From assembly GCF_028281565.1 (NCBI RefSeq), contig NZ_JANQJQ010000043.1, positions 124,001 to 188,000 of the forward strand: a DNA stretch of 64,000 nt, written 5' to 3'. Position 1 is the first letter of the stretch. Each line of letters opens with the position of its first letter. This stretch comes from Seonamhaeicola sp. GTDB taxonomy: Bacteria > Bacteroidota > Bacteroidia > Flavobacteriales > Flavobacteriaceae. The notes under the pieces are model-generated. The model saw only the letters and a list, made by a program, of their open reading frames with translations, was not told where the DNA came from and did not search any database. The position numbers and the translations under genes are program-made. Below are positions 44,214-64,000 of this stretch, piece after piece.

Positions 44214-46142
44214 ATGTTTAATATAAAAAAGATTTCCTTTTTAGGAGGTGTTTTAATCTTATTATCAGGCTGTTTCAGTAAGACCATTGAAACTAAGAAT
44301 GAGCAGGTTTTGGATAATGTCAAAAATGTGCCTGAATGGTTAAGAATGAATGTCGATGAAGCTTTACCTTTCGATAGCTTAAATATTTGGATCCCTACAA
44401 ATAATTTTCAGACTTCTTCACTGATAAGAGTACCTAGGTTTCCTAGAAAGATATCGGATAAAGAAATAAGGAAAAATAATGCGCTAACCGATTTTAATAT
44501 TTCTCCATTGCAACAAGGAGAAATCCTCCATTTAAAAGCCGTTAAAAATGAACAAGTGTCTGCACAATTGGCAATAGGAGCAAAACTTCGATTAAGAAAT
44601 TTAGAGATTGAGGTTGGAGATTTATCGAATGATAAAGGGGAAGTTTTTAAAGCTTCGAATATCAAAATAAGATATGTTAAATATTTACCAGTTCAAAGAT
44701 CAAGGAGTGAATACAAGTGGTCCCCCAAACTTGAAAGTATAGTAGGTGAGGGGACTTCTGGAAACATGAGCCCAAATGTGATTGGTGACCCTTTAGTGGA
44801 GGCAGCCAAAATAGACATACCGGCCTATAGGGCGCAACCTGTTTGGTTTACGTTTACTATACCGAAGAATTCAAATCCCGGACTTTATAGCGGAGTTGTA
44901 ACCGTGAAAATTGATAAGGTTGAAGTAGCCTCGTATGTACTTGAATTGGATGTTTTGGATATGGAAATACCAGACCCCATTGATTATAGTTTTCATTTGG
45001 ATCTTTGGGTTAATCCAAGTGCAATTGCAGGTTATTATAAATTAGAGCACTGGTCCGAAAAGCATTGGGATTTAATTTCTGAATATCTTAAAGAATATGC
45101 TTCAAGAGGCGGAAAAAATATCACAGCTATAATTACTCAAGAACCTTGGCATAAACCATGGATAGGTGATACCACCCATTCTCAGGTAACTTTTGGTTAC
45201 CAAAGTATGGTCAAGTGGATTAAGACCACAGATAATAATTGGGAATTTGATTTTTCAGTTTTTGATAAATATGTGGAAGTTGCTACCAAGGCAGGAATTA
45301 CAGGCATTATAAATGCTTTTTCCATGACTCCTTTCCAGACAGACCAGGCTATTCATTATTTAGATACAGAGGACAACCAGAATAAGGTTGTTAAATTACG
45401 TTTGAACGAACCTGCATATGAGAATGCATGGACCGCCTTTTTAATAAAATTCAAAAAGCATTTAAAAGCTAAAAATATACTTGACAGAGTTTATTTAGCC
45501 TTTGATGAAAAACCGGAAGAAGATATGGAGATTCTGCGCAGTATTATTGCGAACGCAGCCCCAGAGTTTTTAGGCAAAATAACAATTGCAGGACACCCTG
45601 AAATGGGAAAGTATTCCGATAATTTATCAATATCCTATATGTTCTTTCCAGGACAGTCTTTGGAAGGAAAGGGAAAAGTACCTGTTTTACCAACTATTGG
45701 AGAAAGGATTAAACAAGATAAACTAACGACGTTTTATTTATGTGCAGAGCCTTCTCACCCTAATACAATGACCTATTCACCTGCTATTGAGGGACAGTTG
45801 ATTCCTTGGCTGGCATTGAAGTATAATATCGATGGATATCTTAGATGGGCTTTTAATGATTGGACTATGGATCCTTTCAATGAGCCAGTTTTTAATCACG
45901 CTCAAGGTGATGATTACCAAATATATCCCGGTAAAAATGGGCCTATTTCTTCTATTCGCTGGGAGTTGCTAAAAGAAGGAATTGAAGATTATGAATTATT
46001 TAATGTTATCAGAGAAAAGGGCTTCGTTTCACCGGAAGGTTTGTCCGATATAATTGATTTGGCTACTAGAAATCAAGATGGTAGATATAAGAATGCCTCT
46101 GACTTTTTGGAAGTTAGAAATGAATTATTGCAGATTAAATAA
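44214..46142 (+). CDS. GH123/DUF4091-family glycoside hydrolase lipoprotein (paralog A1)
   Basis: A 642-residue lipoprotein (lipobox LILLSGC, Cys about residue 20). The N-terminal part (to about 250) is beta-rich with LNIWIPTNNFQTSSLIRV, YRAQPVWFTFTIP and an IPDPIDYSFHLDLWVNP linker into a TIM barrel. The barrel contains the adjacent Asp-Glu pair of GH123 (LAFDEKPEE, D431-E432) and ends with GYLRWAFNDW and SSIRWELLKEGIEDYELF. GH123 enzymes are retaining, substrate-assisted beta-N-acetylgalactosaminidases. Predicted to act at the cell surface or periplasm. First gene of a three-gene operon; closely similar to the next gene. Confidence 0.88.
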   Translation: MFNIKKISFLGGVLILLSGCFSKTIETKNEQVLDNVKNVPEWLRMNVDEALPFDSLNIWIPTNNFQTSSLIRVPRFPRKISDKEIRKNNALTDFNISPLQQGEILHLKAVKNEQVSAQLAIGAKLRLRNLEIEVGDLSNDKGEVFKASNIKIRYVKYLPVQRSRSEYKWSPKLESIVGEGTSGNMSPNVIGDPLVEAAKIDIPAYRAQPVWFTFTIPKNSNPGLYSGVVTVKIDKVEVASYVLELDVLDMEIPDPIDYSFHLDLWVNPSAIAGYYKLEHWSEKHWDLISEYLKEYASRGGKNITAIITQEPWHKPWIGDTTHSQVTFGYQSMVKWIKTTDNNWEFDFSVFDKYVEVATKAGITGIINAFSMTPFQTDQAIHYLDTEDNQNKVVKLRLNEPAYENAWTAFLIKFKKHLKAKNILDRVYLAFDEKPEEDMEILRSIIANAAPEFLGKITIAGHPEMGKYSDNLSISYMFFPGQSLEGKGKVPVLPTIGERIKQDKLTTFYLCAEPSHPNTMTYSPAIEGQLIPWLALKYNIDGYLRWAFNDWTMDPFNEPVFNHAQGDDYQIYPGKNGPISSIRWELLKEGIEDYELFNVIREKGFVSPEGLSDIIDLATRNQDGRYKNASDFLEVRNELLQIK

Positions 46143-46162
46143 CAGGATTTTAAAATTTAAAT

Positions 46163-48142
46163 ATGAAAATATTAATTAAAATGAAGGATGGCAAAGTGGC
46201 TAAAAGCATTTTGGTGGTCTTGATAGTGTTGATTATTTCCTGTCAGCCTAAGAAAAAAAATAATACTGATGAGTTAGATGCTGAAATAGCTCAAACGATG
46301 GATCCAATTAATAGAATCCCCGAGTGGTTACAGTTTGAAATTGAGAACAATCTACCATCAGAGGATTTAAATGTATGGGTTCCAACTGGCGATCTACAAA
46401 CCTCTTCAATGATTAGGGTACCAAGATTTCCTGTAAAGTATACAAAGGAGAGATTTGAAAGTACACCTTATAGTTTAGATCGGTTTAAAATTAATTTGAT
46501 TGATGAAACCACTAATCTTAAACTGTCAGGAGTTAAAAATGAACAGATTTCTGTTCAGATTGCCATCGCAGCTAAAAAGAATGTCAATAATTTAAGGGTA
46601 GATGTTAGTGATTTTTTGTCGGAAAGCGGTGGGCATATTGCTGGTAGAAATGTTCAAATTAGGTATGTTAAATACGTCCCAGTTCAAAGAGCACGGAGTG
46701 AATTGTCCTGGACGTTGAAACCAGAAGAAATATATGGACCGGAAGTGTCCGGTTTTGGATCACCAGATATTGTAGGAGACCCATTGGTTGAAGTTTCTGA
46801 AGTTTATGTGCCAGCGTTTCGGGCACAACCTGTATGGTTTACTGTTTCCATTCCAAAAGATGCCAAATCGGGAATTTATAAAGGTACTATCAGCATGGTA
46901 TCAAAGGAATTTCCAAAAAAAGAAATCCCAATTACCCTAGAAGTTTTGGACAAAGAAATACCGGATGCAAAAGATTACAAGTTCTTTTTGGACTTATGGT
47001 TAAATCCGAATGCTATTGCAGTTGCTAATAACATAGAGCTATGGTCAGAAAAGCACTGGGATTTGGTTGAAAAATACATGGACGATCTAGTGTCTAGAGG
47101 TGCTAAAACCATAACCACCACCATAACCCACGACCCTTGGAAGATAGAATGGATTGATAATACAAGGCATTCGCAAACTGGTATCGGATATACGCCAATG
47201 ATTCAATGGAAATTGTTAAAAGATAATACATGGACATATGATTATTCCATATTTGATAAATATGTAACCTTAGCACTAAATACTGGTCTTAGGGAGCGTA
47301 TAGATGTATTTTCATTAACGCCTTTTGAATGGGGCGGAAAGCGATACGTAACCTATTTTGATGAAGAAAAAGGTGAAATTATAGAAGAAGATTTTGAGCC
47401 ATCAGATGAAAAATATGAAGCCTTATGGATTGCCTTTTTAAAAGACTTTGAAGTGCATCTTAAAAGTAAGGGTTGGTTTGAAAAGACCTATTTGAGTTTT
47501 GATGAAAGTCCTAAGGATGTTATAGAATCTATTCTTAAAATAGTAAAATTAGGAGCGCCAGATTTTTTAAATAGATTTTCAATAGCAGGTAAGCCTCATA
47601 CTTCTAGTTTAGCCCAATCCTTGTCAATCTTCTATCTACATTTTACATCGGAATTCAATAAAGAAAAACCAGTTGAGGATTTATTAAGGGAAAGAAAAGA
47701 ATCGGACAAAACAACTACCGTATATTTATGTGGAGAGCCGGCATACCCTAATACCTTTACGTATTCTCCGGCTATAGAATCTCAACTGATACCATGGTTA
47801 GCTCTAAAAATGAAGACCGATGGCTATTTAAGATGGGCTTACAATAGTTGGTCTGATAAAGACCCATTTAACAATCCTGTTTTTAATTTTATCCAAGGTG
47901 ATGATTATTATGTTTACCCAGGTGAGGACGGTCCGGTGTCATCAATTAGATGGGAGTTGATGAAAGAAGGTATAGAAGATTATGAACTTTATAAGATTCT
48001 AGAAGAGCAAGGAAACGTTTCTGAAGAGGTCCTTCAAAATGTTATAGAACTGGCAACTAGAAATGAAAATGGGAAATTTAAAAGTATTTATGATTTTATT
48101 AAAGCCAGACAAATGCTTTTACAAAATGAAAATGTGGAATAA
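46163..48142 (+). CDS. GH123/DUF4091-family glycoside hydrolase lipoprotein (paralog A2)
   Basis: A 659-residue lipoprotein (lipobox VLIIISCQ; an internal Met at residue 7 could be the true start). It shares the whole plan of A1: LNVWVPTGDLQTSSMIRVPRFP, PAFRAQPVWFTVSIP, the Asp-Glu pair in LSFDESPKD (D447-E448), YLCGEPAYPNTFTYSPAIE and GYLRWAYNSW. It starts 20 bases after A1 and overlaps the SGNH gene. The two presumably differ in linkage or aglycone preference. Confidence 0.88.
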   Translation: MKILIKMKDGKVAKSILVVLIVLIISCQPKKKNNTDELDAEIAQTMDPINRIPEWLQFEIENNLPSEDLNVWVPTGDLQTSSMIRVPRFPVKYTKERFESTPYSLDRFKINLIDETTNLKLSGVKNEQISVQIAIAAKKNVNNLRVDVSDFLSESGGHIAGRNVQIRYVKYVPVQRARSELSWTLKPEEIYGPEVSGFGSPDIVGDPLVEVSEVYVPAFRAQPVWFTVSIPKDAKSGIYKGTISMVSKEFPKKEIPITLEVLDKEIPDAKDYKFFLDLWLNPNAIAVANNIELWSEKHWDLVEKYMDDLVSRGAKTITTTITHDPWKIEWIDNTRHSQTGIGYTPMIQWKLLKDNTWTYDYSIFDKYVTLALNTGLRERIDVFSLTPFEWGGKRYVTYFDEEKGEIIEEDFEPSDEKYEALWIAFLKDFEVHLKSKGWFEKTYLSFDESPKDVIESILKIVKLGAPDFLNRFSIAGKPHTSSLAQSLSIFYLHFTSEFNKEKPVEDLLRERKESDKTTTVYLCGEPAYPNTFTYSPAIESQLIPWLALKMKTDGYLRWAYNSWSDKDPFNNPVFNFIQGDDYYVYPGEDGPVSSIRWELMKEGIEDYELYKILEEQGNVSEEVLQNVIELATRNENGKFKSIYDFIKARQMLLQNENVE

Positions 48143-48836
48143 GTTCATTTTGATTTTATTTTTCGTTTTTACAAATTGTAAATCCGTTAGTAATTATAGA
48201 CAAGAAATCAATGGATTGTATCCTCCTTCCAACGTCAATATCCCGTATCATACTGAATGGGCAAGGCATCATTATCCCTTAAGAATAAGGCACTTCAAAA
48301 AGAACCCTTTAAATTATGATGATATTGTTTTTATCGGAAACAGCATTACTGAAAGTGGAGGAGATTGGGGAAAAAGGTTGGGACTTGAGAATGTGAAAAA
48401 TAGAGGTATTTCTGGTGATGTTACAGAAGGGGTTTTAAGTAGATTGAACGAAATAGTACATTATAATCCTAAGGCTGTTATCATTTTAATTGGAATAAAC
48501 GACATGTTTAATGAGGAATTATCTCCGGAATATATAGCAAATAATATATTTAAAATAACAGATGTTATAGTAAGGAAGTCTCCTAAAACAGCCATTTATG
48601 TTCAAACTATTTTGCCAACTTCAAATCAACATTTGATTGAAAAAATCCTAAAGACCAATAAAATTCTTAAAGAGAAAAAAGGGGCATTTGAGTTAATAGA
48701 TATTTATGAGATATTTGTGGATAACTCTAATGGTTTAATACAAGAGAAGTTTACCTATGATGGTACTCATCTAACAGAAATAGGTTACAATCATTGGGCT
48801 CATTACTTGAAAAGTACAATTTTAAATAAGCCATAA
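48126..48836 (+). CDS. SGNH/GDSL-family hydrolase lipoprotein (probable carbohydrate esterase)
   Basis: A 236-residue lipoprotein (MKMWNKF, then ILFFVFTNCKS). The four SGNH blocks are visible: IGNSITESGG (nucleophile Ser), GDVTEG, LIGINDM and DGTHLTEIGY with the catalytic Asp-His. Such proteins de-esterify sugars, commonly removing O-acetyl groups. I choose the ATG at 48126, which overlaps the GH123 A2 stop by 17 bases; the longer frame from 48063 lies wholly inside A2 and lacks a signal at its start. Deacetylation ahead of GH123 action is inferred from the operon. Confidence 0.87.
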   Translation: MKMWNKFILILFFVFTNCKSVSNYRQEINGLYPPSNVNIPYHTEWARHHYPLRIRHFKKNPLNYDDIVFIGNSITESGGDWGKRLGLENVKNRGISGDVTEGVLSRLNEIVHYNPKAVIILIGINDMFNEELSPEYIANNIFKITDVIVRKSPKTAIYVQTILPTSNQHLIEKILKTNKILKEKKGAFELIDIYEIFVDNSNGLIQEKFTYDGTHLTEIGYNHWAHYLKSTILNKP

Positions 48837-48895
48837 ATGAAATAAGCTTTTATTTACTTTTAAGGATTGTTGGTTTTTTTACCTAAATTTAAAAA

Positions 48896-48921
48896 TACCT
48901 ACCCTCTTTTACGAAATTACC
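48896..48921 (+). promoter_or_regulatory. Shared upstream motif, copy 2 (GEVED protein)
   Basis: TACCTACCC-TCTTTTA-CGAAATTACC, 57 bases before the start codon at 48979. Best match to copy 3 at 56335 (about 18 of 23 positions). Confidence 0.5.
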
Positions 48922-48978: not shown

Positions 48979-49818
48979 ATGAAGAAAATTACATTGAAAG
49001 TTTTAACAGTAATAATAGTTACTATTAGTTTTCAGGCACAAGCCCAGTATTGTTCTGCATCTTGTACGGGGGCAAATTATGGTCTTTATGTGGAAACAGT
49101 TGTTACTACTGGGGGTACAACGAACATTAATCATACGGGTGGTTCTGGAACAGATTACTATTTGTCAGTGGCTGAGACTTTGACCATTCCGGCAGGGGAG
49201 ACCTTTAATATAGCAACAACACCTGGGGGCGCTGGTGCGCCAGGAGTTCGTGCAGTGATTTATATTGACTATAATGGAGATGGTGATTTTGAGGATTCAG
49301 GTGAACTTGTAGGTGCTATGAGCCCAGAAAAGGTTTGGAGAGATCCGGCACCAACAGACAATATGGATGTAACTGTACCTGTTAATGCTGTAGTTGGAGC
49401 AACTAAAATGCGTATTTTAGGAGGAGATGCATGGGCTTATAATGATGATATGAGTGGAAATGATCCGGATGGTCCCGGTATACCTGCTTCGCCTTGTGGA
49501 GATCTGGCTAATGCCTCTTTTAAAGATTTTGATGTGCAAATTGAGGCCTCTTTGGGAGTAGATGATTTATCAAATGACCTGCAATTTTCAGTTTACCCTA
49601 ACCCCTTAAAAGGAGATTTTATAAATTTAAGTATGAATGCTCAAAATCAAATAGTAGATATTAAACTGTATAATATTACCGGAAAGATGATTTTTAAGAC
49701 CACATACAAATCTTTTATGGGACACGAAGAAATTCAAATTCCTTCATTAGTAAGTGGTGTTTACTTATTGAATGTGAAAACTAATAATGGTTCATTTACA
49801 AAGAAAATTATTAAGTAA
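48979..49818 (+). CDS. Secreted GEVED-domain protein with T9SS sorting signal
   Basis: A 279-residue exported protein. The signal peptide (IIVTISFQAQAQ) is followed by one GEVED domain (about residues 24-190) with the acidic repeat YIDYNGDGDFEDSGE, likely calcium-binding, and ending CGDLANASFKDFDVQIE. Residues about 205-279 are a type A T9SS sorting domain (VYPNPLKGDFINLS ... SGVYLLNVKTNNG ... TKKIIK). No catalytic domain is present, so it may be a binding or adhesion module. It resembles the third GEVED domain of the 1139-residue GH123 further on. Confidence 0.85.
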   Translation: MKKITLKVLTVIIVTISFQAQAQYCSASCTGANYGLYVETVVTTGGTTNINHTGGSGTDYYLSVAETLTIPAGETFNIATTPGGAGAPGVRAVIYIDYNGDGDFEDSGELVGAMSPEKVWRDPAPTDNMDVTVPVNAVVGATKMRILGGDAWAYNDDMSGNDPDGPGIPASPCGDLANASFKDFDVQIEASLGVDDLSNDLQFSVYPNPLKGDFINLSMNAQNQIVDIKLYNITGKMIFKTTYKSFMGHEEIQIPSLVSGVYLLNVKTNNGSFTKKIIK

Positions 49819-55000: not shown

Positions 55001-55511
55001 ACAAGTAGCTACCTTTGGAATGGAGACACCTCCAGGGGGCGGTAATGATGCATCACCCTATTCACAAACCATATCGGTACCAGCAGATGCTACTATTGCG
55101 ACGCTAAAAATGAGAGTTTTAAATGGCGATGCGTGGACCTATGGAAGTCCTTGGCATAATACCAACAGCCCTTGTGGAACATTTTTAGCGAATTCATCTT
55201 TTCTGGATTTTGCAATAGAAGTCACCGAAGCTTTAAGTACCAATGATAACAATTTGAATATACTTGATGTTAAAGTATACCCTAATCCAACAACGGGCCG
55301 TGTTACTATTAAAACTAAGGATGCGGTAACTACTAAAACAAAAGTTCAGATTATAAATACCCTAGGGCAAGTGGTATACAAAAAGACTAATGATTCTGGA
55401 AAAATAGAGCATATAGTTTTACCGGAGTCGCTAAAAAATGGATTGTATTTTTTAAAGATTCATTTGGGTAAGGATAAAACATTCTCAAGAAAAATAATCC
55501 TTAGAAGGTAG
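52092..55511 (+). CDS. Multimodular GH123 enzyme with three GEVED domains and T9SS sorting domain (paralog B2)
   Basis: An 1139-residue secreted protein. Signal peptide (LILSFSLNSFSQ); GH123 module (about residues 25-560) with LNGSFESKFKRYQKNE, the catalytic Asp-Glu in LYLDEVQQSK (D352-E353) and GYLRWAFDYWQSSDPFDIRDG. Then follow three GEVED domains starting near residues 566, 720 and 883, each with a WIDWNxDEDFxDAGE-type acidic motif. Last, a type A T9SS domain from about residue 1060 (VYPNPTTGRVTIKT ... SRKIILRR). The enzyme is probably displayed on the cell surface. The GEVED modules may bind glycans or calcium. Confidence 0.9.
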   Translation: MFRFSVFLVLILSFSLNSFSQTLNGSFESKFKRYQKNESFSGTESQDWNTVAWKGDRIHKQIVLWSTSNINGLSYSVSPLVKGGDQIITSNIELRFGQYIKGDPEARSCSGYPTHPSFVEIIDALTDVTITSLSATDPLKLWLTIDVPSTTPIGVYTGTITVNGGVTPLVFNISVNVVDYTLPDITNWDFHLDLWQFPAKVLDHYNTANPASQIDIWSDQHFDLFEPGYRILADMGQKAIAAQIKENALGMPSMIRWIKKTNGTWEYDFTAFNKYVTALMSWGIDKQINCFSPVGWNEDEIPYWDEATSSMLNLSAAIGSATYNTRWDHFLTAFKIFLDTKGWFNKTVLYLDEVQQSKLNDVFTVVQNNNSAWKIGIAHTTALSASNSSQLYDASGILGTTSTAGRSGKITTFYTSCTQAKPNSYVTPETSLAEMVWMGWHSTREGLDGYLRWAFDYWQSSDPFDIRDGAHTAGDFAMVYRSSNNSPSKYLPSLRGILLRDGIQDYEKLKILRASLQASSNPHDQIVLTGLNTIIDDFNSTSGSAAEQLIIEGQQAIKDIVLGTFGYCQVNGVSDTNYYVKSLSTTGGTENISFSTNQYPSNGYEHHTTTKVTAIADSNFTINLENSSASNCARAKVWIDWNGDEDFEDAGEEVFSGGNPNVCTNSTSYNIPVTVPSNTALGDKRMRIQVRDASDPEPVACGINDKTGTADFNLEVIIDNPYCKPKNDGANMDYYVEGLTTTGGVNATSINFNGAGFPADGYQYHTATSVDVVRESTLVLNLENSSTSNCARTRIWIDWNNDEDFDDAGELVYDEDTFQSCTNTTSKTINVQVPATAVFGETRMRVRLRDAWLAEPEPCNTFSFTGAADFNINVVDAPLPPPTYCDASGTDHADGVTHYYTSAVTTTGGSTNIAYSSSSYPAGGYISSAQKVIVKQGESFTMDVSLASPWSLSDVFIDWNYDGDFDDSGEQVATFGMETPPGGGNDASPYSQTISVPADATIATLKMRVLNGDAWTYGSPWHNTNSPCGTFLANSSFLDFAIEVTEALSTNDNNLNILDVKVYPNPTTGRVTIKTKDAVTTKTKVQIINTLGQVVYKKTNDSGKIEHIVLPESLKNGLYFLKIHLGKDKTFSRKIILRR

Positions 55512-55597: not shown

Positions 55598-56248
55598 ATG
55601 GATAATATTTATATAGTAAATAAAATTACCAAGGGAGAGTTGCAAATAAACGGTAAGGCTGATAGCCATATCTGGCAACAAGCTAATATACTTGAGAGCT
55701 TCCGTTCTCCATGGGATTCAAAGGTTATTAAAAAAATTGATTTCAGAGCTCTTTGGGATGAATACAAGTTGTTTTTTTGCTTTAAAGTATATGATTCCGA
55801 AGTACATATTCATCCTTCCAAAAATATAAATGATAGTATAAATAATTCAGATAGGGTTGAATTGTTTTTCAAAAAAGATGATACTATGAATCCCTATTAT
55901 TGCCTTGAAATTGACCCTACTTCAAGGATAATGGATTTTAAGGCTTATCCTCAAAAAGTATTTGATTTTGATTGGGAATGGCCTAGTAAGGATATAGTGG
56001 TTAAATCATCTATCGAGAAACAATACTTTATTGTAGAAATAGCAATAAGTATAAATTCCTTGGAAAGCTTTAATTTAATTAAGGATGGAAAAATCGAAAC
56101 AGGGATTTATCGTGCCAAGTATAATAAAAATGAAAAAGGCGTTTATGAGCCAACTTGGATTTGCTGGATTGACCCCAAAACAGAATCCCCTAATTTCCAT
56201 ATTGCAACTTCTTTTGGAGTACTTCAACTTGAAAATTATTTTGAGTAA
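55598..56248 (+). CDS. CBM9-like (DOMON-type) carbohydrate-binding protein without signal peptide
   Basis: A 216-residue protein resembling CBM9-like domains: INGKADSHIWQQANIL at the start, FRALWDEYKLFFCFKVYDSEV, NSDRVELFFKKDD and the tryptophan-rich EPTWICWIDPKTESPNFHIATSFG at the end. No signal sequence precedes the domain, and there is no in-frame extension upstream, so it is either cytoplasmic or exported in an unusual way. Relatives are usually secreted modules of glycan enzymes. It sits between the GH123 genes and the sugar-phosphate genes. Confidence 0.75.
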   Translation: MDNIYIVNKITKGELQINGKADSHIWQQANILESFRSPWDSKVIKKIDFRALWDEYKLFFCFKVYDSEVHIHPSKNINDSINNSDRVELFFKKDDTMNPYYCLEIDPTSRIMDFKAYPQKVFDFDWEWPSKDIVVKSSIEKQYFIVEIAISINSLESFNLIKDGKIETGIYRAKYNKNEKGVYEPTWICWIDPKTESPNFHIATSFGVLQLENYFE

Positions 56249-56438: not shown

Positions 56439-57347
56439 ATGAATAAAGAAAAACCAACTTTAGTAGTACTGGCGGCCGGAATGGGTAGCCGCTATGGTGG
56501 ATTAAAACAGATAGATTCCTTTACTCCAGAGGGGGATACTATCATAGATTTTTCACTATATGATGCATTGAGAGCAGGCTTTGGAAAGTTTGTCTTCATT
56601 ATAAGGAAAAGCTTTGAAAAAGAGTTCAAGGAAATATTCAATAAGAAACTTGAAGGGAAGGCAGAGGTCGATTATGTGTATCAAGAGCTCGATAGTGTGC
56701 CAGAGAAGTTTATAAACCCAGAGCGTACCAAACCATGGGGGACTGGTCATGCCCTTTTAATGGCTAAAGGTGCTGTAAAGGAGAATTTTGCCATAATCAA
56801 CGCAGATGATTTTTATGGCCAGGAGGCATTTGAAACCATGGCCAAACATTTAATGGAAACCGATAAGAAATCGTACGATTTTAGCACCATGGCATACCTT
56901 TTAAAAAATACCGTATCTGAATACGGATTTGTGTCAAGGGGAGAATGTAGTGTTGATAATGAAGGTTATTTAACAGATGTAACTGAACGTACCCATATTG
57001 AAAAAGTTAATGGAAAGTTGATGAGGAAAGATGATAATGATGATTTTATTCCTATAGATGAGAATACGGTGGTTTCCATGAATTTTTGGGGATTCACGCC
57101 TAAGTGTTTTGAGTTTGGCGGAAAATTGTTTGAAACATTTCTTGAAAAAAATAAGGAAAACCTAAAAGCGGAGTTCTACTTGCCCTCAATAGTCAATGAG
57201 ATTTTAAAATCGCGTATGGCAAAGGTGGAAGTGTTGAAGTCCGATGCCAAATGGTTTGGGGTTACCTATAAAGAAGATAAGCCCATAGTGCAGAGTGCAA
57301 TTGAAGAATTGAAATCAAAAGGGGTTTACCCAAAACAACTATGGTAG
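56439..57347 (+). CDS. Sugar-1-phosphate nucleotidyltransferase
   Basis: A 302-residue NTP_transferase enzyme. The nucleotide-binding loop is LAAGMGSRYGGLKQ; KPWGTGHALLMAKG and INADDFYG (metal-binding Asp) follow, then SEYGFVSRGE and NFWGFTPKCFEF. It is expected to join UTP with a hexose-1-phosphate. Since the next gene is an N-acetylhexosamine 1-kinase-like protein and an epimerase follows, I infer GalNAc-1-P/GlcNAc-1-P uridylyltransferase activity. No acyltransferase domain is fused, unlike GlmU. Only one base separates its stop from the kinase start. Confidence 0.85.
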   Translation: MNKEKPTLVVLAAGMGSRYGGLKQIDSFTPEGDTIIDFSLYDALRAGFGKFVFIIRKSFEKEFKEIFNKKLEGKAEVDYVYQELDSVPEKFINPERTKPWGTGHALLMAKGAVKENFAIINADDFYGQEAFETMAKHLMETDKKSYDFSTMAYLLKNTVSEYGFVSRGECSVDNEGYLTDVTERTHIEKVNGKLMRKDDNDDFIPIDENTVVSMNFWGFTPKCFEFGGKLFETFLEKNKENLKAEFYLPSIVNEILKSRMAKVEVLKSDAKWFGVTYKEDKPIVQSAIEELKSKGVYPKQLW

Positions 57348-57348: not shown

Positions 57349-58419
57349 ATGATAGAGGAACAATTGAAATACATATTTAATCAATTTGATCACAAAGGAG
57401 AGTACAAGTCGTTTAAGGAATTGGCGTCAGGTCATATTAACGACACTTATTTGATAAAGACGGTGAGGAAGCCATACTTCGTCTTGCAGCGAATAAATCA
57501 CGGAGTTTTCAAGGACGTACCTGGTCTTATAGAAAACAAAGTAGCAGTGAGTTGCCATATCCAAAAAAAACTCGAAAACAAATCCAAGAAAAAGCAGGAA
57601 AGAGGCGTATTGGCTTTTGCCAGGACCAAAGGTGGATCGGCCTACTATAGAGGTCATGAAGGAAATTATTGGAATTTAATGTACTTCATTGATAAAAGTG
57701 TTACTCACGAAACCGTTAAAAGCGGGGATATAGCTTATGAAGGAGGGAAACTAATGGGTAAATTCCTGATGCTTACCAAAGACTTTGACGTTAATAAGTT
57801 AATAGAGGTTATACCTAAGTTTCATGATATGTCTTTTAGGTATACTCAGTTTGAAGAAGCAGTAACAAAGGCTTCCAAAGAAAGATTGGAGGCTTCAAAA
57901 GAATATATAAAGATTATAAATGACTCTAGGCAAGAGATGCATATTCTGCAGTCCTTGAAGGAGTCTGGAGCAATAAGAACCAGGGTTACCCATAATGATA
58001 CTAAGATTTCAAATGTGCTTTTCAATAAAAATAACAAAGGGATTTGTGTTATAGATACAGATACCGTTATGCCCGGCATAATCCATTATGATTTTGGAGA
58101 TGCTATTAGGACCATATGTAATACAGCTGCAGAAGACGAAACAAATCTGGAGTTGGTTGAGTTTAATGTGGATTTTTATAAGGCCTATACCAAAGGGTTC
58201 CTCAAACATATGAAATCTTCAATTTCTCCCTTGGAACTTAAGTATCTACCCCTAGGTGCCAAAACCATGATATTCATTATGGCCTTGCGCTTTTTAACAG
58301 ATTATTTGAACGGCGATATATATTATAAAACCAAGTATCCAGATCATAATCTAGATAGGACCAAAAACCAATTCAAGCTTTTGCAGAGTTTGTCAAATCA
58401 ATTATCAAAAATAGAATAA
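57349..58419 (+). CDS. APH-family kinase, probable N-acetylhexosamine 1-kinase (NahK-like)
   Basis: A 356-residue aminoglycoside-phosphotransferase-fold kinase. The N-lobe has GHINDTYLIKTVRKPYFVLQRIN; the catalytic loop is TRVTHNDTKISNVLFN (Asp in HND), with the metal-binding Asp in CVIDTDTVMPG and DFGDAIR. NahK of bifidobacteria, which phosphorylates GalNAc/GlcNAc at C1, has this size and motif set. Pairing with the nucleotidyltransferase (1 base apart) and the epimerase (4 bases) supports a Leloir-like role. Substrate is inferred, not proven. Confidence 0.82.
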   Translation: MIEEQLKYIFNQFDHKGEYKSFKELASGHINDTYLIKTVRKPYFVLQRINHGVFKDVPGLIENKVAVSCHIQKKLENKSKKKQERGVLAFARTKGGSAYYRGHEGNYWNLMYFIDKSVTHETVKSGDIAYEGGKLMGKFLMLTKDFDVNKLIEVIPKFHDMSFRYTQFEEAVTKASKERLEASKEYIKIINDSRQEMHILQSLKESGAIRTRVTHNDTKISNVLFNKNNKGICVIDTDTVMPGIIHYDFGDAIRTICNTAAEDETNLELVEFNVDFYKAYTKGFLKHMKSSISPLELKYLPLGAKTMIFIMALRFLTDYLNGDIYYKTKYPDHNLDRTKNQFKLLQSLSNQLSKIE

Positions 58420-58423: not shown

Positions 58424-59362
58424 ATGAAGAAATATGTAGTTACAGGAGGAGCAGGGTTTATTGGAAGTCATATCACAGAGTATTTGTTGAAGAATGGACA
58501 TCAAGTTACTGTCATAGATAACCTAAGAACAGGCTTTGAAAAGAACCTTAAAGGTTTAAATGCCAGATTTTTTGAAGAGGATATAAGAAACAAAGATCTT
58601 ATCAACAGAATTATTACCAACACAGATGCTGTTTTTCATTTAGCCGCACTTGTAAGCGTTCCGGAATCTTTATTGAAAATTGATGAGTGTATTGAAATAA
58701 ATACAATGGGGACCATTAACATTTTGGAAGCGGCCAGACAAAATGATAATTGCAAAGTGGTGCTTTCTTCATCTGCCTCAAATTATGGCGATAATCCAGT
58801 TTTGCCAAAAGTAGAAAGTATGATTCCTGAACCAATGACACCATATGCAATCACCAAACTAGATGGAGAATATTACCTAAGGATGTATTATGATCAATAC
58901 AATTTGCAAACGGCCTCATTAAGGTACTTTAACGTTTTTGGTCCTAGACAAAACCCAAAATCAGCTTATGCAGCTGCAGTTCCAATTTTTATAGATAAAG
59001 CATTAAAAAATGAGCCCGTATCAATTTATGGAGATGGTAAACAAACTAGAGATTTTATTTATGTAAAGGATGTGGTAAGGGCGAATGTTTTGGCATCAGA
59101 AAAAGGGAACGAAACCTATAATGTTGCCTTAGGGCATAGTACGAGTATTTTGGAATTGGCCGAAAGGATAATTGATATAACAAATTCAAAATCAGAGATT
59201 AAATTTTTAGAAGAGCGCCCTGGGGACATAAAGCATTCCAAAGCCGACCCTTCAAAGTTCAACAAATTAGGTTTTAAGCCACAATATACTATAGAAGAAG
59301 CATTGGTAGAAACTATAAATCATTATGAAAAGGAGTTAATAACTAAGTCAAACAAATTCTAA
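58424..59362 (+). CDS. NAD-dependent UDP-sugar 4-epimerase (WbpP/GalE-like)
   Basis: A 312-residue short-chain dehydrogenase/reductase of the extended epimerase class. NAD-binding GGAGFIGSHI at the N-terminus, LSSSASNYGDNP with the catalytic Ser, and YAITK (Tyr-x3-Lys). The substrate region RYFNVFGPRQNPKSAYAAAVPIF and LGFKPQYTIEEAL are closer to UDP-GlcNAc/GalNAc epimerases (WbpP type) than to classical GalE. In this operon it would turn UDP-GalNAc into UDP-GlcNAc. It is 4 bases after the kinase. Confidence 0.87.
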   Translation: MKKYVVTGGAGFIGSHITEYLLKNGHQVTVIDNLRTGFEKNLKGLNARFFEEDIRNKDLINRIITNTDAVFHLAALVSVPESLLKIDECIEINTMGTINILEAARQNDNCKVVLSSSASNYGDNPVLPKVESMIPEPMTPYAITKLDGEYYLRMYYDQYNLQTASLRYFNVFGPRQNPKSAYAAAVPIFIDKALKNEPVSIYGDGKQTRDFIYVKDVVRANVLASEKGNETYNVALGHSTSILELAERIIDITNSKSEIKFLEERPGDIKHSKADPSKFNKLGFKPQYTIEEALVETINHYEKELITKSNKF

Positions 59363-59372
59363 AAAGAAAGAT

Positions 59373-60683
59373 ATGGGTTCAAAGAAAAACAGTAATACCA
59401 TCCCAATTTTTATCATAGGCACAATGTTCGCCATATTCGGTTTTGTGACTTGGATTAACGGCACTTTAATACCTTTTATGAAGACGGTTAACGAACTCAC
59501 AGAGGCACAGTCCTATTTGGTTGCATCGGCTTCATATATCAGCTTTGTAGTAATGGCTCTTCCGGCATCCTATCTATTGAATAAGATAGGTTACAAAAAG
59601 GGTATGTCGGTTGGCCTTTTAATCATGGCACTTGGAGCATTGGTGTTTATCCCAGCAGCCCATGCTAGGACTTATTGGATTTTTCTATTGGCTATTTTCA
59701 TCCAGGGCATTGGGATGACCATTTTACAGACAGCGGCCAATCCATATATTACCATATTGGGACCCATAGAGAGCGGTGCCAAACGTATAGCCATAATGGG
59801 GATTTCTAATAAGGCGGCTGGTATCATAGCCAACATCATATTCGGAGCTCTATTGTTGACTGGGATAGATGATGTTAAAGAACGTTTGCTTACAGCGACA
59901 GAATCTGAAAAGGGAGCATTGCTTGACACTATGGCAGATAGCGTTGTAACGCCGTATATTGTTATGGCCTTAGCCCTATTTGTATTTGGGCTTCTTATAA
60001 GGAAGGCACCATTGCCTGAGGTGGAGGCCGAGGAGTCTAAAGAAGCGACGAAAAAAGTCACTGTAAAGACCCATATCTTCCAGTTCCCGCATCTGTGGTT
60101 CGGTGTATTGACCCTGTTCGTCTATGTGGGGGCAGAGGTGATTGCGGGAGATTCCATTATCGCTTATGGTCTGTCTCTTGGCTTTCCGGCAGAGTATGCA
60201 AAATATTTTACTCCATTTACTTTAACAGCTATGATTTCCATGTATGCTTTAGGGGTATTCTTGATTCCTAAATATATCAAACAGGAAAAGGCATTGATAA
60301 TAAGTGCTGCCTTAGGGGTGGTGTTCAGTATAGGTATTTTGTTGACAACAGGTATCACTTCAGTGTTGTTTGTAGCAGCTTTAGGAATAGCAAATGCATT
60401 GGTCTGGCCTGCAGTATGGCCGTTGACTTTAGACGGTCTTGGGAAATTTACAAAAACGGGATCCGCCCTTTTGATTATGGCCATAGCTGGAGGGGCTATT
60501 ATCCCTCCCCTGTACGGTAAGTTCGTAGATGCGAGTAAGCATGGCTTGATTACCTCAGGAGTACTAGAATCAGAGGCTCTGGCAAGAGCCTCAACCAGCA
60601 GCTATTGGATACTCTTACCGTGCTATACGATCATATTGTTATTCGCCCTTTGGGGCCACAGAATAGGAAAGAAGAAAAAATAG
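59373..60683 (+). CDS. FHS-family sugar importer (FucP/NagP type)
   Basis: A 436-residue major-facilitator protein with about twelve hydrophobic segments. FAIFGFVTWINGTLIPFMK near the start and GIGMTILQTAANPYITILGP are characteristic of the FucP/NagP/GluP branch (fucose, N-acetylglucosamine or glucose with protons). Position between the epimerase and NagB points to N-acetylhexosamine, most probably GalNAc. It is part of the operon 56439-63119. Confidence 0.9.
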   Translation: MGSKKNSNTIPIFIIGTMFAIFGFVTWINGTLIPFMKTVNELTEAQSYLVASASYISFVVMALPASYLLNKIGYKKGMSVGLLIMALGALVFIPAAHARTYWIFLLAIFIQGIGMTILQTAANPYITILGPIESGAKRIAIMGISNKAAGIIANIIFGALLLTGIDDVKERLLTATESEKGALLDTMADSVVTPYIVMALALFVFGLLIRKAPLPEVEAEESKEATKKVTVKTHIFQFPHLWFGVLTLFVYVGAEVIAGDSIIAYGLSLGFPAEYAKYFTPFTLTAMISMYALGVFLIPKYIKQEKALIISAALGVVFSIGILLTTGITSVLFVAALGIANALVWPAVWPLTLDGLGKFTKTGSALLIMAIAGGAIIPPLYGKFVDASKHGLITSGVLESEALARASTSSYWILLPCYTIILLFALWGHRIGKKKK

Positions 60684-60707
60684 AAACAAACATAAACGAT
60701 AATCAAG

Positions 60708-62636
60708 ATGTTACAAAGTATTATAGATAAGTCCACTGGATTCGAAAAAAGGTTCGAGAATGTAGATACTGTGGTATTCCAGGATTCAGAAAAAGCCTCA
60801 AGGGCCGTAGCCAGTGAGATTGCCGACCTTATTAGGGTCAAGCAGGCACAGAAACAGCCCTGTGTACTAGGGCTTGCGACTGGTTCTACCCCAAAAGGGT
60901 TGTATGCTGAACTTGTTCGCCTGCACAAGGAAGAAGGCCTAAGTTTTAAAAACGTTATAAGCTTTAACCTAGACGAATACTATCCAATGCAACCGGATTC
61001 CATACACAGCTATGTATATTTCATGAATGAGCTGCTTTTTAAGCACGTGGATATCTTGCCGGAGAATGTGCACATACCAGACGGGACCCTTTCCAAAGCC
61101 GATATATCTGACTACTGTGATCGCTATGAGTCGAAAATAGAACGCCTCGGAGGTATAGACCTTCAGGTCCTTGGAATTGGAGGCAACGGTCACATTGGTT
61201 TCAACGAATCGGGTTCTTTGCAGAATTCCAGGACCAGGTTGGTGGCCCTTGACCATATCACTAGGGTAGCTGCAAGTAAGGATTTTTCTGGATTAGGAAA
61301 TACGCCCCGGACAGCTATAACCTTGGGTGTGAAAAAAATCATGGAGGCCAAAAGGGTCATTTTAATGGCATGGGGAGAAGGCAAGTCAGATATAGTGAAA
61401 TCATCTGTAGAAGGCCCGGTAACTAGTCAGGTGCCGGCGTCCTACCTTCAAGAACACCATAATGCAACCTTTGTCCTCGACAAGGGGTCTGGGTCTAGGT
61501 TGACCCGTGTTGATACGCCATGGCTTGTTGAGAAAATAAACTGGACTGACAGGTTAATAAAAAAAGCGGTTTTGGGACTTGCGCTGCATTTGGATAAGCC
61601 AATCTTAATGCTTACAGATGCGGACTATATCGAAAATGGGATGAGCGACCTATTGACAGCATCTGGCCCGGCCTATGATATCAACATCAAGATATTCAAC
61701 GAGCTTCAGAACACCATTACTGGTTGGCCGGGAGGTAAACCCGGGGCAGACGATTCCAAACGTCCCGAACGTGCCGAACCGGCGAGTAAGCGGGTTTTGA
61801 TATTCAGCCCACATCCCGATGACGATATCATCAGTATGGGCGGAACGTTCAAACGGCTTGTGGATCAAGGACATGAGGTACATGTGGCATACCAGACTTC
61901 TGGTAATATAGCAGTGGCTGATGATGAGGCACATAGGTTTGCCAGTTTTGTTTGTGATTACAACGAGCATTTCAGTATAGAGAGCCCCGAAGCTATTAAG
62001 ATATATAAGGAAGCCACCAAATTCCTTGAAAGAAAGAAATCTGGCGATGTCGATATTCCGGAAGTTAGGGACATCAAAGGGCTCATTCGTAAAGGGGAGG
62101 CTAGAGCCACTAGTTATTTTGTGGGACTTAAGGAGGAACAAATACACTTCATGAACTTACCTTTCTACGAAACGGGAACCATTGAGAAGAGACCTATTGG
62201 AGAAGAGGATATAAAGATAACAGTGGATTTGATAGAGCAAATAAAACCGCATCAAGTCTATGCGGCAGGAGACCTTGCAGATCCACATGGTACTCATAAG
62301 GTGTGTTTGGATGTTATATTCGAGGCCATGAAGTGTCTTAAGCCAAAGAAATTCATGAAGGAATGTTGGCTGTGGCTTTACAGAGGTGCATGGCAGGAAT
62401 GGGGTATTGACGAGATAGAGATGGCCGTACCTATGGGGCCAGACCAAGTATTGGACAAGCGTTACGGGATTTTTAAGCATCAGTCGCAAAAGGATGGGGT
62501 GGTGTTTCAAGGAACTGATAGCAGAGAGTTTTGGCAACGTGCAGAGGATAGAAACAGTGAGACTGCCGAAATTTATGATAAGCTTGGGCTATCTCATTAT
62601 GCGGCTATGGAAGCTTTTGTAAGATGGGAATACTGA
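60708..62636 (+). CDS. nagB: Glucosamine-6-phosphate deaminase fused to PIG-L/LmbE deacetylase
   Basis: A 642-residue bifunctional protein. Residues about 20-275 are a NagB deaminase/isomerase: GLATGSTPKGLYAEL, FNLDEYYPMQPDSIHSY and GIGGNGHIGFNESGS (the His is kept; the Asp usual two residues before it is Asn). Residues about 363-610 are a PIG-L/LmbE zinc deacetylase: FSPHPDDDIISMGGTF and DLADPHGTHKVC. The fusion could convert GlcNAc-6-P to Fru-6-P by deacetylation and deamination, which would explain why no nagA lies nearby. The same fusion is common in Bacteroidota. Base composition looks richer in GC than neighbours. Confidence 0.9.
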   Translation: MLQSIIDKSTGFEKRFENVDTVVFQDSEKASRAVASEIADLIRVKQAQKQPCVLGLATGSTPKGLYAELVRLHKEEGLSFKNVISFNLDEYYPMQPDSIHSYVYFMNELLFKHVDILPENVHIPDGTLSKADISDYCDRYESKIERLGGIDLQVLGIGGNGHIGFNESGSLQNSRTRLVALDHITRVAASKDFSGLGNTPRTAITLGVKKIMEAKRVILMAWGEGKSDIVKSSVEGPVTSQVPASYLQEHHNATFVLDKGSGSRLTRVDTPWLVEKINWTDRLIKKAVLGLALHLDKPILMLTDADYIENGMSDLLTASGPAYDINIKIFNELQNTITGWPGGKPGADDSKRPERAEPASKRVLIFSPHPDDDIISMGGTFKRLVDQGHEVHVAYQTSGNIAVADDEAHRFASFVCDYNEHFSIESPEAIKIYKEATKFLERKKSGDVDIPEVRDIKGLIRKGEARATSYFVGLKEEQIHFMNLPFYETGTIEKRPIGEEDIKITVDLIEQIKPHQVYAAGDLADPHGTHKVCLDVIFEAMKCLKPKKFMKECWLWLYRGAWQEWGIDEIEMAVPMGPDQVLDKRYGIFKHQSQKDGVVFQGTDSREFWQRAEDRNSETAEIYDKLGLSHYAAMEAFVRWEY

Positions 62637-62765
62637 TTGTAAATATTAAATTAAGATTAATAGCGCTCTTAATAGTTTAGTTTAGTTGATAGGCCGTTTC
62701 CCAATGAGTTAACCATGATTGTTCAAACTAGGGGCGGTCTTCTTAAGAATTTAGGGTAATTAGTC

Positions 62766-63119: not shown

Positions 63120-63139
63120 AAATAATAACAAAATATAGA

Positions 63140-64000
63140 ATGGCATTAATAAAATCGATTTCCGGAATTAGGGGAACCATTGGTGGAAGCGTAAATGATA
63201 ATTTAACGCCAATAGATGCGGTTAAGTTCGCCGCCTCTTATGGAACTTGGATAAAAAGAAGAAATACTAAAAAAGACCTTACTATTGTAATAGGTAGAGA
63301 TGCCAGAATCTCTGGAGATATGATAAGTAGTTTAGTAAGTAATACCCTGGTGGGTTTGGGAATTCATGTTAAGGATATTGGGCTGTCAACGACTCCAACA
63401 GTTGAAGTAGCCGTTCCCAAAGAGTCTGCCGATGGAGGTATTATCATAACTGCTAGCCATAACCCAAAGCAATGGAATGCTCTTAAACTCTTAAATGAGA
63501 AAGGTGAGTTTTTAAATGCTGAAGACGGATTAGAAATTCTAAAAATAGCGGACCAAAATGACTATATCTTTGCTGAGCTTGATGATTTAGGTAGTTACAA
63601 TGAAGAAAATGGCTATATAGATAGACATATTGATGAAGTTCTGAAACTGGGTTTGGTTAATGTTCACGCAATCAAACAATCAAAATTTAAAGTTGTAGTT
63701 GATGCTGTAAATTCAACTGGAGGAATAGCTATACCTGCATTATTAAAAAAGTTAGGAGTAGAATGTACAAAGTTATATTGCGAACCTAATGGCAAATTTC
63801 CTCATAACCCCGAACCGTTAAAGGAACACTTAACAGATATATCCGAATTGGTTATCAAGGAAAAGGCTGATTTTGGTATTGTTGTAGATCCTGATGTAGA
63901 TAGATTAGCCATTGTATGTGAAGATGGTTCTATGTTTGGAGAAGAGTATACCTTGGTGGCATGTGCTGATTACGTGCTTGGTCAATCTAAAAACAAACAT
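63140..64000 (+). CDS. Phosphoglucosamine/phosphoacetylglucosamine mutase-type enzyme, N-terminal part (cut by window end)
   Basis: The first 287 codons of an alpha-D-phosphohexomutase, beginning MALIKSISGIRGTIGGS. Present are the substrate loop VIGRDARISG, the phosphoserine loop TASHNPKQWNALK (active Ser near residue 105) and the metal-binding loop VDPDVDRLAIV. The sugar-binding and C-terminal domains are outside the window. It resembles the GlmM-type enzymes of Bacteroidota. In this operon, conversion of GlcNAc-1-P to GlcNAc-6-P would complete the route to NagB; alternatively it is the housekeeping glmM. Confidence 0.88.
   Translation, partial: MALIKSISGIRGTIGGSVNDNLTPIDAVKFAASYGTWIKRRNTKKDLTIVIGRDARISGDMISSLVSNTLVGLGIHVKDIGLSTTPTVEVAVPKESADGGIIITASHNPKQWNALKLLNEKGEFLNAEDGLEILKIADQNDYIFAELDDLGSYNEENGYIDRHIDEVLKLGLVNVHAIKQSKFKVVVDAVNSTGGIAIPALLKKLGVECTKLYCEPNGKFPHNPEPLKEHLTDISELVIKEKADFGIVVDPDVDRLAIVCEDGSMFGEEYTLVACADYVLGQSKNKH

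What the first reader, a model, noticed from the sequence alone, without database searches (positions are those of the whole stretch)
44214..64000. A Leloir-like GalNAc salvage pathway coupled to GH123 hydrolases
Within one continuous same-strand region the sequence shows four GH123 enzymes, an SGNH esterase, an FHS sugar importer, an APH-fold NahK-like kinase, a sugar-1-P nucleotidyltransferase, a WbpP-like 4-epimerase, a phosphohexosamine mutase and a NagB-PIG-L fusion. From known families: GH123 releases beta-GalNAc; NahK plus uridylyltransferase plus epimerase is the bifidobacterial lacto-N-biose/galacto-N-biose strategy. Inference: this flavobacterium uses GalNAc -> GalNAc-1-P -> UDP-GalNAc -> UDP-GlcNAc -> GlcNAc-1-P -> GlcNAc-6-P -> GlcN-6-P -> Fru-6-P rather than the AgaA/AgaS tagatose route. 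I do not know of a description of such a unit with GH123 in Bacteroidota.
Basis: partly seen in the sequence, partly recalled or inferred. Interest (0 to 1): 0.85.

Follow-up and report, generated by a model that had tools for sequence, protein, structure and literature searches.

The report
GalNAc-eating gene cluster in flavobacteria
A bacterium of the flavobacteria carries, in one row of genes, what looks like the whole toolkit for releasing the sugar GalNAc from glycans and burning it by way of UDP-sugars, which may supply the undescribed later steps of GalNAc use in its phylum, gut species included.

Summary
One + strand run (44214 to the window end and on to about 78.5 kb in window coordinates) holds four GH123, an SGNH esterase, a CBM9-like protein, a PF00483 nucleotidyltransferase, NahK-type kinase, WbpP-like epimerase, FHS transporter, NagB-PIG-L fusion, GlmM-type mutase, then sensor and SusCD-like genes. 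The pathway inference is largely supported. The genome has no NagA or AgaS match near the family cut-offs. Of 62 kinase loci surveyed, 22 have a GH109 alpha-GalNAcase within 10 kb and 26 touch the transferase (0 of 20 control stretches for either); 19 show none of the queried partners. The same catabolic operon recurs in three other Flavobacteriaceae and, reshuffled, in Marinilabiliales. Corrections: GH123 is a rare partner (2 of 62), GH109 the more frequent one. The transferase is of the pyrophosphorylase type, not GalT, so the route is Leloir-like only in outline. The kinase step is already published for B. theta (BT4240, PMC11992087); the parts of that paper I saw leave the later steps undefined. 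Whether the PIG-L domain deacetylates GlcNAc-1-P or GlcNAc-6-P is open.

The parts
44214..46142 (+). GH123 beta-N-acetylgalactosaminidase a; N-terminus looks like a lipoprotein signal
   Evidence: PF13320 290.6 bits; BvGH123 5l7v E 5e-84, DE pair aligned
46163..48142 (+). GH123 b; N-terminus looks like a lipoprotein signal
   Evidence: PF13320 275.8 bits; DE motif
48063..48836 (+). SGNH/GDSL esterase; true start probably near 48135
   Evidence: PF13472; lipoprotein-like stretch after the inner Met
48979..49818 (+). GEVED protein with T9SS C-terminal tail
   Evidence: PF20009, PF18962
49970..51964 (+). GH123 c
   Evidence: PF13320 199 bits; 5l7v E 1.4e-75, DE pair aligned
52092..55511 (+). GH123 d with three GEVED stretches and T9SS tail
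   Evidence: PF13320 198 bits, PF20009, PF18962; DE motif
55598..56248 (+). CBM9-fold protein without an obvious signal peptide (by eye), recurrent companion of the kinase
   Evidence: PF06452 E 1.9e-12; relatives beside kinases; model pLDDT 96, Foldseek to 4jpq and CBM9
56439..57347 (+). sugar-1-phosphate nucleotidyltransferase (NTPT), predicted UTP:GalNAc-1-P/GlcNAc-1-P uridylyltransferase
   Evidence: PF00483; 3pnn E 8e-99; adjacent to kinase in 26 of 62 loci
57349..58419 (+). NahK-type N-acetylhexosamine 1-kinase, predicted GalNAc 1-kinase
   Evidence: GH109 within 10 kb in 22 of 62 loci
58424..59362 (+). UDP-HexNAc C4-epimerase, WbpP/WbgU-like (group 3 pocket residues)
   Evidence: Ala184 and Ser272 the same in 4 of 4 operons
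59373..60683 (+). FHS-family (NagP-like) inner-membrane sugar importer
   Evidence: NF046060 402 bits (cut-off 625), TIGR01272 above cut-off
60708..62636 (+). NagB-PIG-L fusion: GlcN-6-P deaminase plus PIG-L deacetylase domain
   Evidence: NF002557 1048 bits; PF01182 and PF02585; HPDDD/HGTH motifs in 10 of 10 copies checked
63140..64000 (+). GlmM-type phosphohexosamine mutase, cut by the window end (runs to window position 64525, read in L011)
   Evidence: TIGR03990 517 bits; paralogue 69% identical elsewhere in the genome

Best explanation
This is a polysaccharide-utilization locus for a beta-GalNAc-containing glycan with its own intracellular GalNAc pathway. Outside and in the periplasm, four GH123 enzymes (with the esterase) release GalNAc; SusCD imports oligomers and the FHS carrier brings GalNAc into the cytoplasm. 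There GalNAc -> GalNAc-1-P (kinase, ATP) -> UDP-GalNAc (NTPT, UTP) -> UDP-GlcNAc (epimerase) -> GlcNAc-1-P (NTPT in reverse with PPi, or GlmU). GlcNAc-1-P then reaches Fru-6-P through the GlmM-type mutase and the NagB-PIG-L fusion, which deacetylates and deaminates. Shown here: gene content, order, families, motifs, lack of Aga-route markers, recurrent clustering. Inferred: every substrate, direction and cell compartment. The same route, built from reshuffled genes and more often beside GH109 than GH123, appears widespread in Bacteroidota and would supply the steps after the published B. theta GalNAc kinase.
For: Families and motifs. No NagA (best 22.9 bits, cut-off 225.65) and no AgaS (best 34.9 bits, cut-off 529.2) in the own genome. 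NTPT is in 57 of 62 genomes with the kinase and 37 of 333 without. Of 62 kinase loci: NTPT adjacent in 26, GH109 within 10 kb in 22, one or the other in 41, both in 7; all 22 GH109 carry PF21252, and their profile matches the alpha-GalNAcase 2ixa; NagB type in 8, mutase in 3. None of the 20 control stretches carries kinase, NTPT, GH109, NagB, mutase, FHS or GH123 at the same cut-offs. 18 closest kinase loci: NTPT 18, NagB-PIG-L 15, FHS 14, CBM9 9, mutase 7, epimerase 4. The B. theta GalNAc 1-kinase is needed for growth on GalNAc (PMC11992087).
Against: No activity of any enzyme here was tested. 36 of 62 kinase loci lack an adjacent NTPT, 19 of 62 show none of the queried partners, and 14 of 18 closest loci lack the epimerase, so the full chain in one place is the minority. 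Epimerase proximity by itself says little: 5 of 62 kinase loci but also 1 of 20 controls at the same cut-off. NTPT also occurs in 37 genomes without the kinase; among 30 of these that I looked at it lies near a GlmM-type mutase in 2 (L121, L122) and near galK in 1 (L128), so it may not be GalNAc-specific. A second kinase-NTPT pair in the same genome lies beside galT-galK-galM. GlmM-type mutases are, as I recall, poor on GlcNAc-phosphates. In B. theta, deletion of the transporter gene of the kinase operon had no effect on growth on GalNAc (PMC11992087, passage). No expression data.
Confidence: 0.8

Rival explanations
1. The kinase, transferase and epimerase salvage GalNAc into UDP-GalNAc/UDP-GlcNAc for cell-surface glycans and wall, not for energy.
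For: Several kinase-NTPT loci carry none of the queried catabolic genes (for example L050, L080, L081, L087). UDP-HexNAc are end products of the three core enzymes.
Against: In the window the trio sits in one tight gene run with FHS and NagB-PIG-L and, after a gap, a second GlmM-type mutase; 15 of 18 closest loci carry NagB-PIG-L. B. theta without the kinase does not grow on GalNAc and reaches about half of the wild-type level on chondroitin sulphate (PMC11992087, passages).
Confidence: 0.1
2. The kinase-NTPT pair serves galactose or another neutral sugar (an Isselbacher-type route; the GalY idea of PMC5583593).
For: The own second pair lies beside galT-galK-galM; NTPT sits near galK in L128; GalY is a PF00483 protein proposed to replace GalT (PMC5583593, passages; whether NTPT is its orthologue was not tested).
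Against: Only 1 of 62 kinase loci has galK or galT within 10 kb, against 22 with GH109. The kinase matches NahK, and PMC11992087 reports no activity of the B. theta homologue on the other monosaccharides tested.
Confidence: 0.06
3. The pair is an AmgK-MurU-like peptidoglycan recycling module (recalled: anomeric MurNAc/GlcNAc kinase plus MurNAc-1-P uridylyltransferase).
For: Same fold classes as I recall them: APH kinase plus PF00483 transferase.
Against: phmmer in the PDB found the N-acetylhexosamine kinases at E 1e-63 and no entry labelled AmgK; NTPT matched 3pnn and GalU entries and none labelled MurU; GH109 or GH123 lie near the kinase in many loci.
Confidence: 0.03

Closest known systems
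Bifidobacterial lacto-N-biose/galacto-N-biose pathway (NahK, uridylyltransferase, GalE)
   Same: 1-kinase of the NahK family, uridylyl transfer, UDP-HexNAc 4-epimerization; net GalNAc-1-P to GlcNAc-1-P
   Different: Here the transferase is PF00483 (pyrophosphorylase type) rather than GalT type (recalled for bifidobacteria); epimerase is WbpP-like (group 3) rather than group 2 (PMC6668579); FHS carrier and GH123 rather than ABC importer and GNB/LNB phosphorylase (recalled); mutase and NagB-PIG-L sit in the same cluster
B. thetaiotaomicron PUL BT4240-50 (GalNAc 1-kinase BT4240, GH109 BT4243; PMC11992087)
   Same: GalNAc 1-kinase with a GalNAc-releasing glycosidase and an inner-membrane sugar transporter in a Bacteroidota PUL
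   Different: In the passages I read no transferase, epimerase, NagB or mutase is named in that PUL (not every gene of it was described there), and it releases alpha-GalNAc from mucin; the window has those genes and GH123
Aga pathway (AgaK/PTS, AgaA, AgaS, tagatose route)
   Same: catabolic end use of GalNAc
   Different: phosphorylation at C6, no epimerization (recalled); no NagA-type deacetylase or AgaS found in this genome
Flavobacterium johnsoniae chitin locus ChiUL (NagB Fjoh_4557; PMC5127042)
   Same: PUL with SusCD, inner-membrane sugar transporter and a nagB gene predicted to feed Fru-6-P
   Different: chitin/GlcNAc substrate; NagK Fjoh_4589 and NagA Fjoh_3974 predicted there; no 1-kinase or UDP-sugar steps in the passages seen

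Membership tests
NahK N-acetylhexosamine 1-kinase | near full-length match, with THNDTK, DFGD, GHIN and RFL stretches kept | tested here: met
   (which residues are catalytic is recalled)
NahK N-acetylhexosamine 1-kinase | 1-phosphorylation of GalNAc/GlcNAc | not testable with these tools
   no assay
GH123 | PF13320 above cut-off and a DE pair | tested here: met
   (4 of 4); DE aligned to BvGH123 for 2 of the 4
WbpP-type (group 3) UDP-HexNAc epimerase | small residue (Cys or Ser) in the C5 pocket and Ala in the C2 pocket, criteria of PMC6668579 | tested here: met
   Ser272 and Ala184 by alignment with WbgU and the same in 4 of 4 operons; the mapping of WbpP numbers to these columns is mine, partly from memory
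WbpP-type (group 3) UDP-HexNAc epimerase | preference for UDP-GlcNAc/UDP-GalNAc | not testable with these tools
   no assay
Bifidobacterial GNB/LNB pathway | GalT-type hexose-1-P uridylyltransferase in the cluster | tested here: not met
   the transferase matched PF00483 only; a GalT-like gene, named from its translation, lies on another contig
Bifidobacterial GNB/LNB pathway | GH112 GNB/LNB phosphorylase | not tested
   not searched
Aga pathway | NagA/AgaA-type deacetylase and AgaS | tested here: not met
   TIGR00221 and TIGR02815 in the own genome (100% complete by the tool); an AgaA model of its own was not run
NagB-PIG-L (PRK02122) | NF002557 above cut-off, both domains, PIG-L metal motifs | tested here: met
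Phosphoglucosamine mutase | TIGR03990 Arch_GlmM above cut-off | tested here: met
NagP GlcNAc transporter | NF046060 above cut-off (625) | tested here: not met
   402 bits; gluP subfamily TIGR01272 is met
AmgK-MurU module | MurNAc 1-kinase and MurNAc-1-P uridylyltransferase | tested here: inconclusive
   no entry so labelled among PDB sequence matches; AmgK and MurU themselves were not compared

The most novel reading that the evidence does not exclude
Bacteroidota burn GalNAc by running UDP-GlcNAc biosynthesis backwards. One PF00483 enzyme both makes UDP-GalNAc and, after epimerization, pyrophosphorolyses UDP-GlcNAc with the PPi it just made, so UTP is only a catalyst. The PIG-L domain of the NagB fusion deacetylates GlcNAc-1-P (PIG-L enzymes act on 1-O-substituted alpha-GlcNAc, recalled) to GlcN-1-P. 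The GlmM-type mutase then works on its normal substrate pair in reverse, giving GlcN-6-P for NagB. This would be a NagA-free route, general in the phylum, and the missing part of the B. theta GalNAc pathway.
Probability: 0.3. Interest if true: 0.75.

Novelty: new variant of a known kind. Interest (0 to 1): 0.62.

Why it matters
A 2017 survey of human gut genomes found the largest numbers of GalNAc-releasing enzymes in two Bacteroides genomes, but the GalNAc catabolic pathway (AgaS/AgaA) only in Actinobacteria, Firmicutes and Proteobacteria (PMC5583593, passages). [quoted passage not shown] theta on GalNAc, with 'downstream metabolism' left open in the passages I read (PMC11992087). The window and its relatives give a concrete, gene-by-gene answer that can be tested in culturable strains, and suggest what the NagB-PIG-L fusion may be for in genomes where no NagA was found (29 of 66 fusion-bearing genomes). 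It also marks a stand-alone CBM9-fold protein as an unexplained companion of the pathway.

Tried and rejected
GH123 as the general partner: rejected. In the family survey GH123 is in 9 of 205 genomes and the kinase in 65 of 205; both in 6 (G000, G392, G400, G407, G549, G589; Fisher p 0.03), but close together only in the window and, about 11 kb apart, in G400. In the named scan one of 80 loci (L247) has a weak GH123 match, 49 bits.

NagB-PIG-L as a simple replacement of NagA: not settled. NagA is found in 41 and the fusion in 66 of 395 genomes, together in 37; 29 fusion genomes show no NagA, 4 NagA genomes no fusion. In the class-wide searches at most 4 (NagA) or 3 (fusion) first-look candidates per genome were scored and the E-value limits differed (1e-25, 1e-100), so absences there are softer than in the own genome, where 9 of 9 NagA candidates were scored.

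Five kinase genomes without NTPT at E 1e-20 (G008, G227, G238, G311, G350): in G008 and G238 a distant NTPT (64 and 77 bits) does lie beside the kinase (L091, L092), and G227 is a weak kinase match.

Unbiased look at neighbours: 69 of the 71 same-strand neighbours listed (nearest gene on either side of the kinase after skipping NTPT, GH109, GH123, NagB and mutase; 115 neighbours on either strand in all) were scanned: CBM9_2 in 8, LacI in 7, then smaller groups (DUF2490, helicases and GntR in 4 each, fucosidase and sulfatase in 2 each) among 120 families, of which 25 were shown.

Tree of 158 kinases (FastTree; counts repeated over all rows): GH109 proximity (32 rows; those from L170 on not Pfam-checked) changes 16 times (14 when only loci of 12 kb or more count), NTPT adjacency (60 rows) 13 times, against shuffled means of 29.6 and 48.5. 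The associations are in part inherited but arose more than once. Fisher tests treat related loci as independent. The control stretches were placed by me at round positions on long contigs of kinase genomes, not drawn at random.

Rows dropped: of the 62 kinase genomes, G227 (weak match) and G308 (fragments) were not fetched; the 62 loci are the window, the own C42 copy and 60 others (G231 twice). NTPT-only loci: 30 of 37 kinase-negative genomes, plus 10 from kinase-positive genomes with NTPT elsewhere. One search found no taxonomy entry for the name Labilibaculum euxinus.
Full report
WHAT IS THERE. Between 44214 and the window end all substantial genes lie on the + strand. The short - strand ORFs at 59672, 61650 and 62157 lie inside long + strand genes and were taken as spurious. 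Pfam and NCBIfam confirm four GH123 catalytic domains, a GDSL esterase, GEVED/T9SS proteins, a CBM9-like protein, a PF00483 nucleotidyltransferase (NTPT), an APH-fold kinase, an SDR epimerase, an FHS-type transporter and a NagB-PIG-L fusion. Phosphomutase domains are found in the cut gene at 63140; the complete gene passes the archaeal-type GlmM model. Spacing from transferase to NagB-PIG-L is 1, 4, 10 and 24 bp. Beyond the window follow what look like a hybrid two-component sensor, a GEVED protein, SusC, SusD and a large regulator (named from the translations, not from a family scan). So this reads as a complete PUL, not just a catabolic operon.

THE ENZYMES. The kinase aligns over nearly its whole length with solved N-acetylhexosamine 1-kinases (B. 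longum, recalled), E 3.5e-64, with the THNDTK, DFGD and GHIN stretches kept. The transferase has the LAAGMGSRYGGLK stretch and matches an uncharacterized structure, 3pnn, at E 8e-99 and GalU proteins only weakly. The epimerase matches WbgU and WbpP among the top PDB hits, though the best two are other SDR epimerases. PMC6668579 (passages read) says that group 2 and 3 enzymes carry a small Cys or Ser in the C5 pocket and that WbpP has Ala209 in the C2 pocket. The aligned residues here are Ser272 and Ala184, the same in all four operons that carry this gene; the exact mapping to WbpP numbering is mine. Each GH123 keeps a DE pair (aligned to BvGH123 in two).

WHAT IS NOT THERE. In the own genome (5.27 Mb, 100% complete by the tool) the NagA model reaches only 22.9 bits (cut-off 225.65) and AgaS only 34.9 (cut-off 529.2, in a 624-aa open frame). 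AgaA is, as I recall, a NagA homologue; no AgaA model was run. The fusion occurs four times in the genome, in one place beside an FHS-like carrier (named from its translation) and a kinase with a weak NagK match of 37 bits, so the window copy looks like a duplicate of a GlcNAc pair recruited to GalNAc.

COMPARISON ACROSS BACTEROIDOTA. In an even draw of 395 genomes of the window's class, the kinase is in 62 (E 0.001), NTPT in 94 (E 1e-20), the NagB-PIG-L fusion in 66, NagA in 41. NTPT is in 57 of the 62 kinase genomes and in 37 of the 333 others. I fetched 60 neighbourhoods and added the window and the own second copy. Of these 62, NTPT is adjacent on the same strand in 26, GH109 lies within 10 kb in 22, FHS in 11, a NagB type in 8, an epimerase in 5, the mutase in 3, GH123 in 2, galK or galT in 1; 41 have an adjacent NTPT or a GH109, 7 have both, 19 show none of the queried partners. 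All 22 GH109 carry the GH109 C-terminal domain, and their profile matches the solved alpha-N-acetylgalactosaminidase 2ixa. Neither the 20 control stretches nor the 40 NTPT loci away from a kinase hold a GH109. The epimerase count is not informative by itself, since 1 of 20 controls has one too. By my reading of the handles the GH109 cases fall in 7 family codes. This is the strongest evidence that the sugar is GalNAc.

THE SAME UNIT ELSEWHERE. Among the 18 loci closest to the window kinase, window included, NTPT is present in 18, NagB-PIG-L in 15, FHS in 14, the CBM9-like gene in 9, the mutase in 7 and the epimerase in 4. In Marinilabiliales, Plebeiobacterium marinum (L206) and, by its record title, Labilibaculum euxinus (L194) carry NTPT, mutase, transporter, kinase, a 772-775-aa NagB-related protein, CBM9 and a GalE in different orders; Draconibacterium mangrovi (L192) carries transporter, kinase, NTPT, mutase and a GH109-like gene at 236 bits that I did not check further. 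Loci of another family (Sphingobacteriaceae, inferred from matching contig lengths) join the kinase to GH109, FHS, GalE, NagB-PIG-L and mutase in part (L060, L061, L066). Every proposed step is thus found beside the kinase in more than one arrangement, though seldom all together.

LITERATURE. PMC11992087 (abstract, section 12 and passages read): BT4240 is a GalNAc 1-kinase with about 275-fold preference over GlcNAc, 39% identical to the B. longum enzyme; its deletion prevents growth on GalNAc and leaves about half growth on chondroitin sulphate; deletion of the transporter BT4242 had no effect; the word starts uridyl, nucleotidyltransferase, epimerase, Leloir and UDP have no occurrences in the main text. 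PMC5583593 (passages): GalNAc pathway in 76 genomes of Actinobacteria, Firmicutes and Proteobacteria only; GalY proposed. PMC12118421 (passages): no occurrence of Bacteroid. PMC11087588 (passages): GH123 enzymes, no occurrence of kinase. PMC5127042 (passages): F. johnsoniae NagB could not be expressed; NagA predicted. My ten searches listed no paper that I could recognise, by title, start of abstract or the passages read, as describing a GalNAc-1-P uridylyltransferase/epimerase catabolic unit in Bacteroidota; several listings showed only the best 20-25 rows, and most subscription papers and all preprints are not covered.

MECHANISM. Best reading: GalNAc -> GalNAc-1-P -> UDP-GalNAc -> UDP-GlcNAc -> GlcNAc-1-P -> GlcN-6-P -> Fru-6-P. 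Because NTPT is of the pyrophosphorylase class, the first uridylylation makes PPi that can drive the release of GlcNAc-1-P; bifidobacteria, as I recall, use a GalT-type exchange instead. The GlmM class of the mutase and the liking of PIG-L enzymes for 1-O-substituted GlcNAc (recalled) favour the second; the presence of the fusion in a locus with a presumed GlcNAc 6-kinase favours the first.

VERDICT. Observation confirmed; interpretation partly supported and extended. New variant of a known kind: the logic is that of the NahK pathway, with a different transferase class, epimerase group, importer and end section, and wide spread in the phylum. GH123 coupling is a local speciality.

Noticed in passing
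window 55598-56248; L061:10515-11180, L066:10498-11154, L172:7172-7804, L194:13621-14265 and others: A stand-alone CBM9-fold protein without an obvious signal peptide (by eye) recurs beside the GalNAc kinase: within 70 bp in 8 of the 60 fetched loci, none in 20 controls or 40 NTPT-only loci. Confident model (pLDDT 96) resembles 4jpq of Bacteroides uniformis and CBM9; role unknown.
   Followed up: partly
L012:9409-11413 (G000 C42): Second NTPT-kinase pair (65-66% identical) facing a galT-galK-galM-GntR-like run and an SSS-like transporter (named from translations); function may differ from the window pair.
   Followed up: partly
L194:11230-13554 and L206:6354-8669: NagB-related proteins of 772-775 aa, only 188-190 bits to NF002557 (cut-off 384), in otherwise well-stocked GalNAc clusters; possibly another deaminase architecture.
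   Followed up: no
L128; L121 and L122: In genomes without the kinase, NTPT lies near galK once (in line with the GalY proposal) and near a GlmM-type mutase twice.
   Followed up: no
L252:7383-8426, L172:7813-8856, L178:7821-8867: LacI-type regulator (Pfam-checked in L252 only) divergent between the CBM9-like gene and NTPT in relatives; absent there in the window, which has a sensor-like gene after the mutase instead.
   Followed up: no
window 62784-63119: Small ORF of about 111 aa read by eye in the 503-bp gap between NagB-PIG-L and the mutase; the same gap is roughly 13, 95 and 220 bp in L178, L172 and L252.
   Followed up: no
window 39464-43619: On the - strand just upstream: metallo-beta-lactamase/rhodanese-like, TauE-like and YeeE-like genes and a Crp-like regulator, seemingly a sulphur module unrelated to the PUL (named from translations only).
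   Followed up: no
L250-L251 (G400): A related cluster with GH20 (Pfam), NTPT, kinase, an FHS type, NagB-PIG-L, a sulfatase-like gene (by eye) and GH123 within about 18 kb, possibly for sulfated GalNAc glycans.
   Followed up: partly
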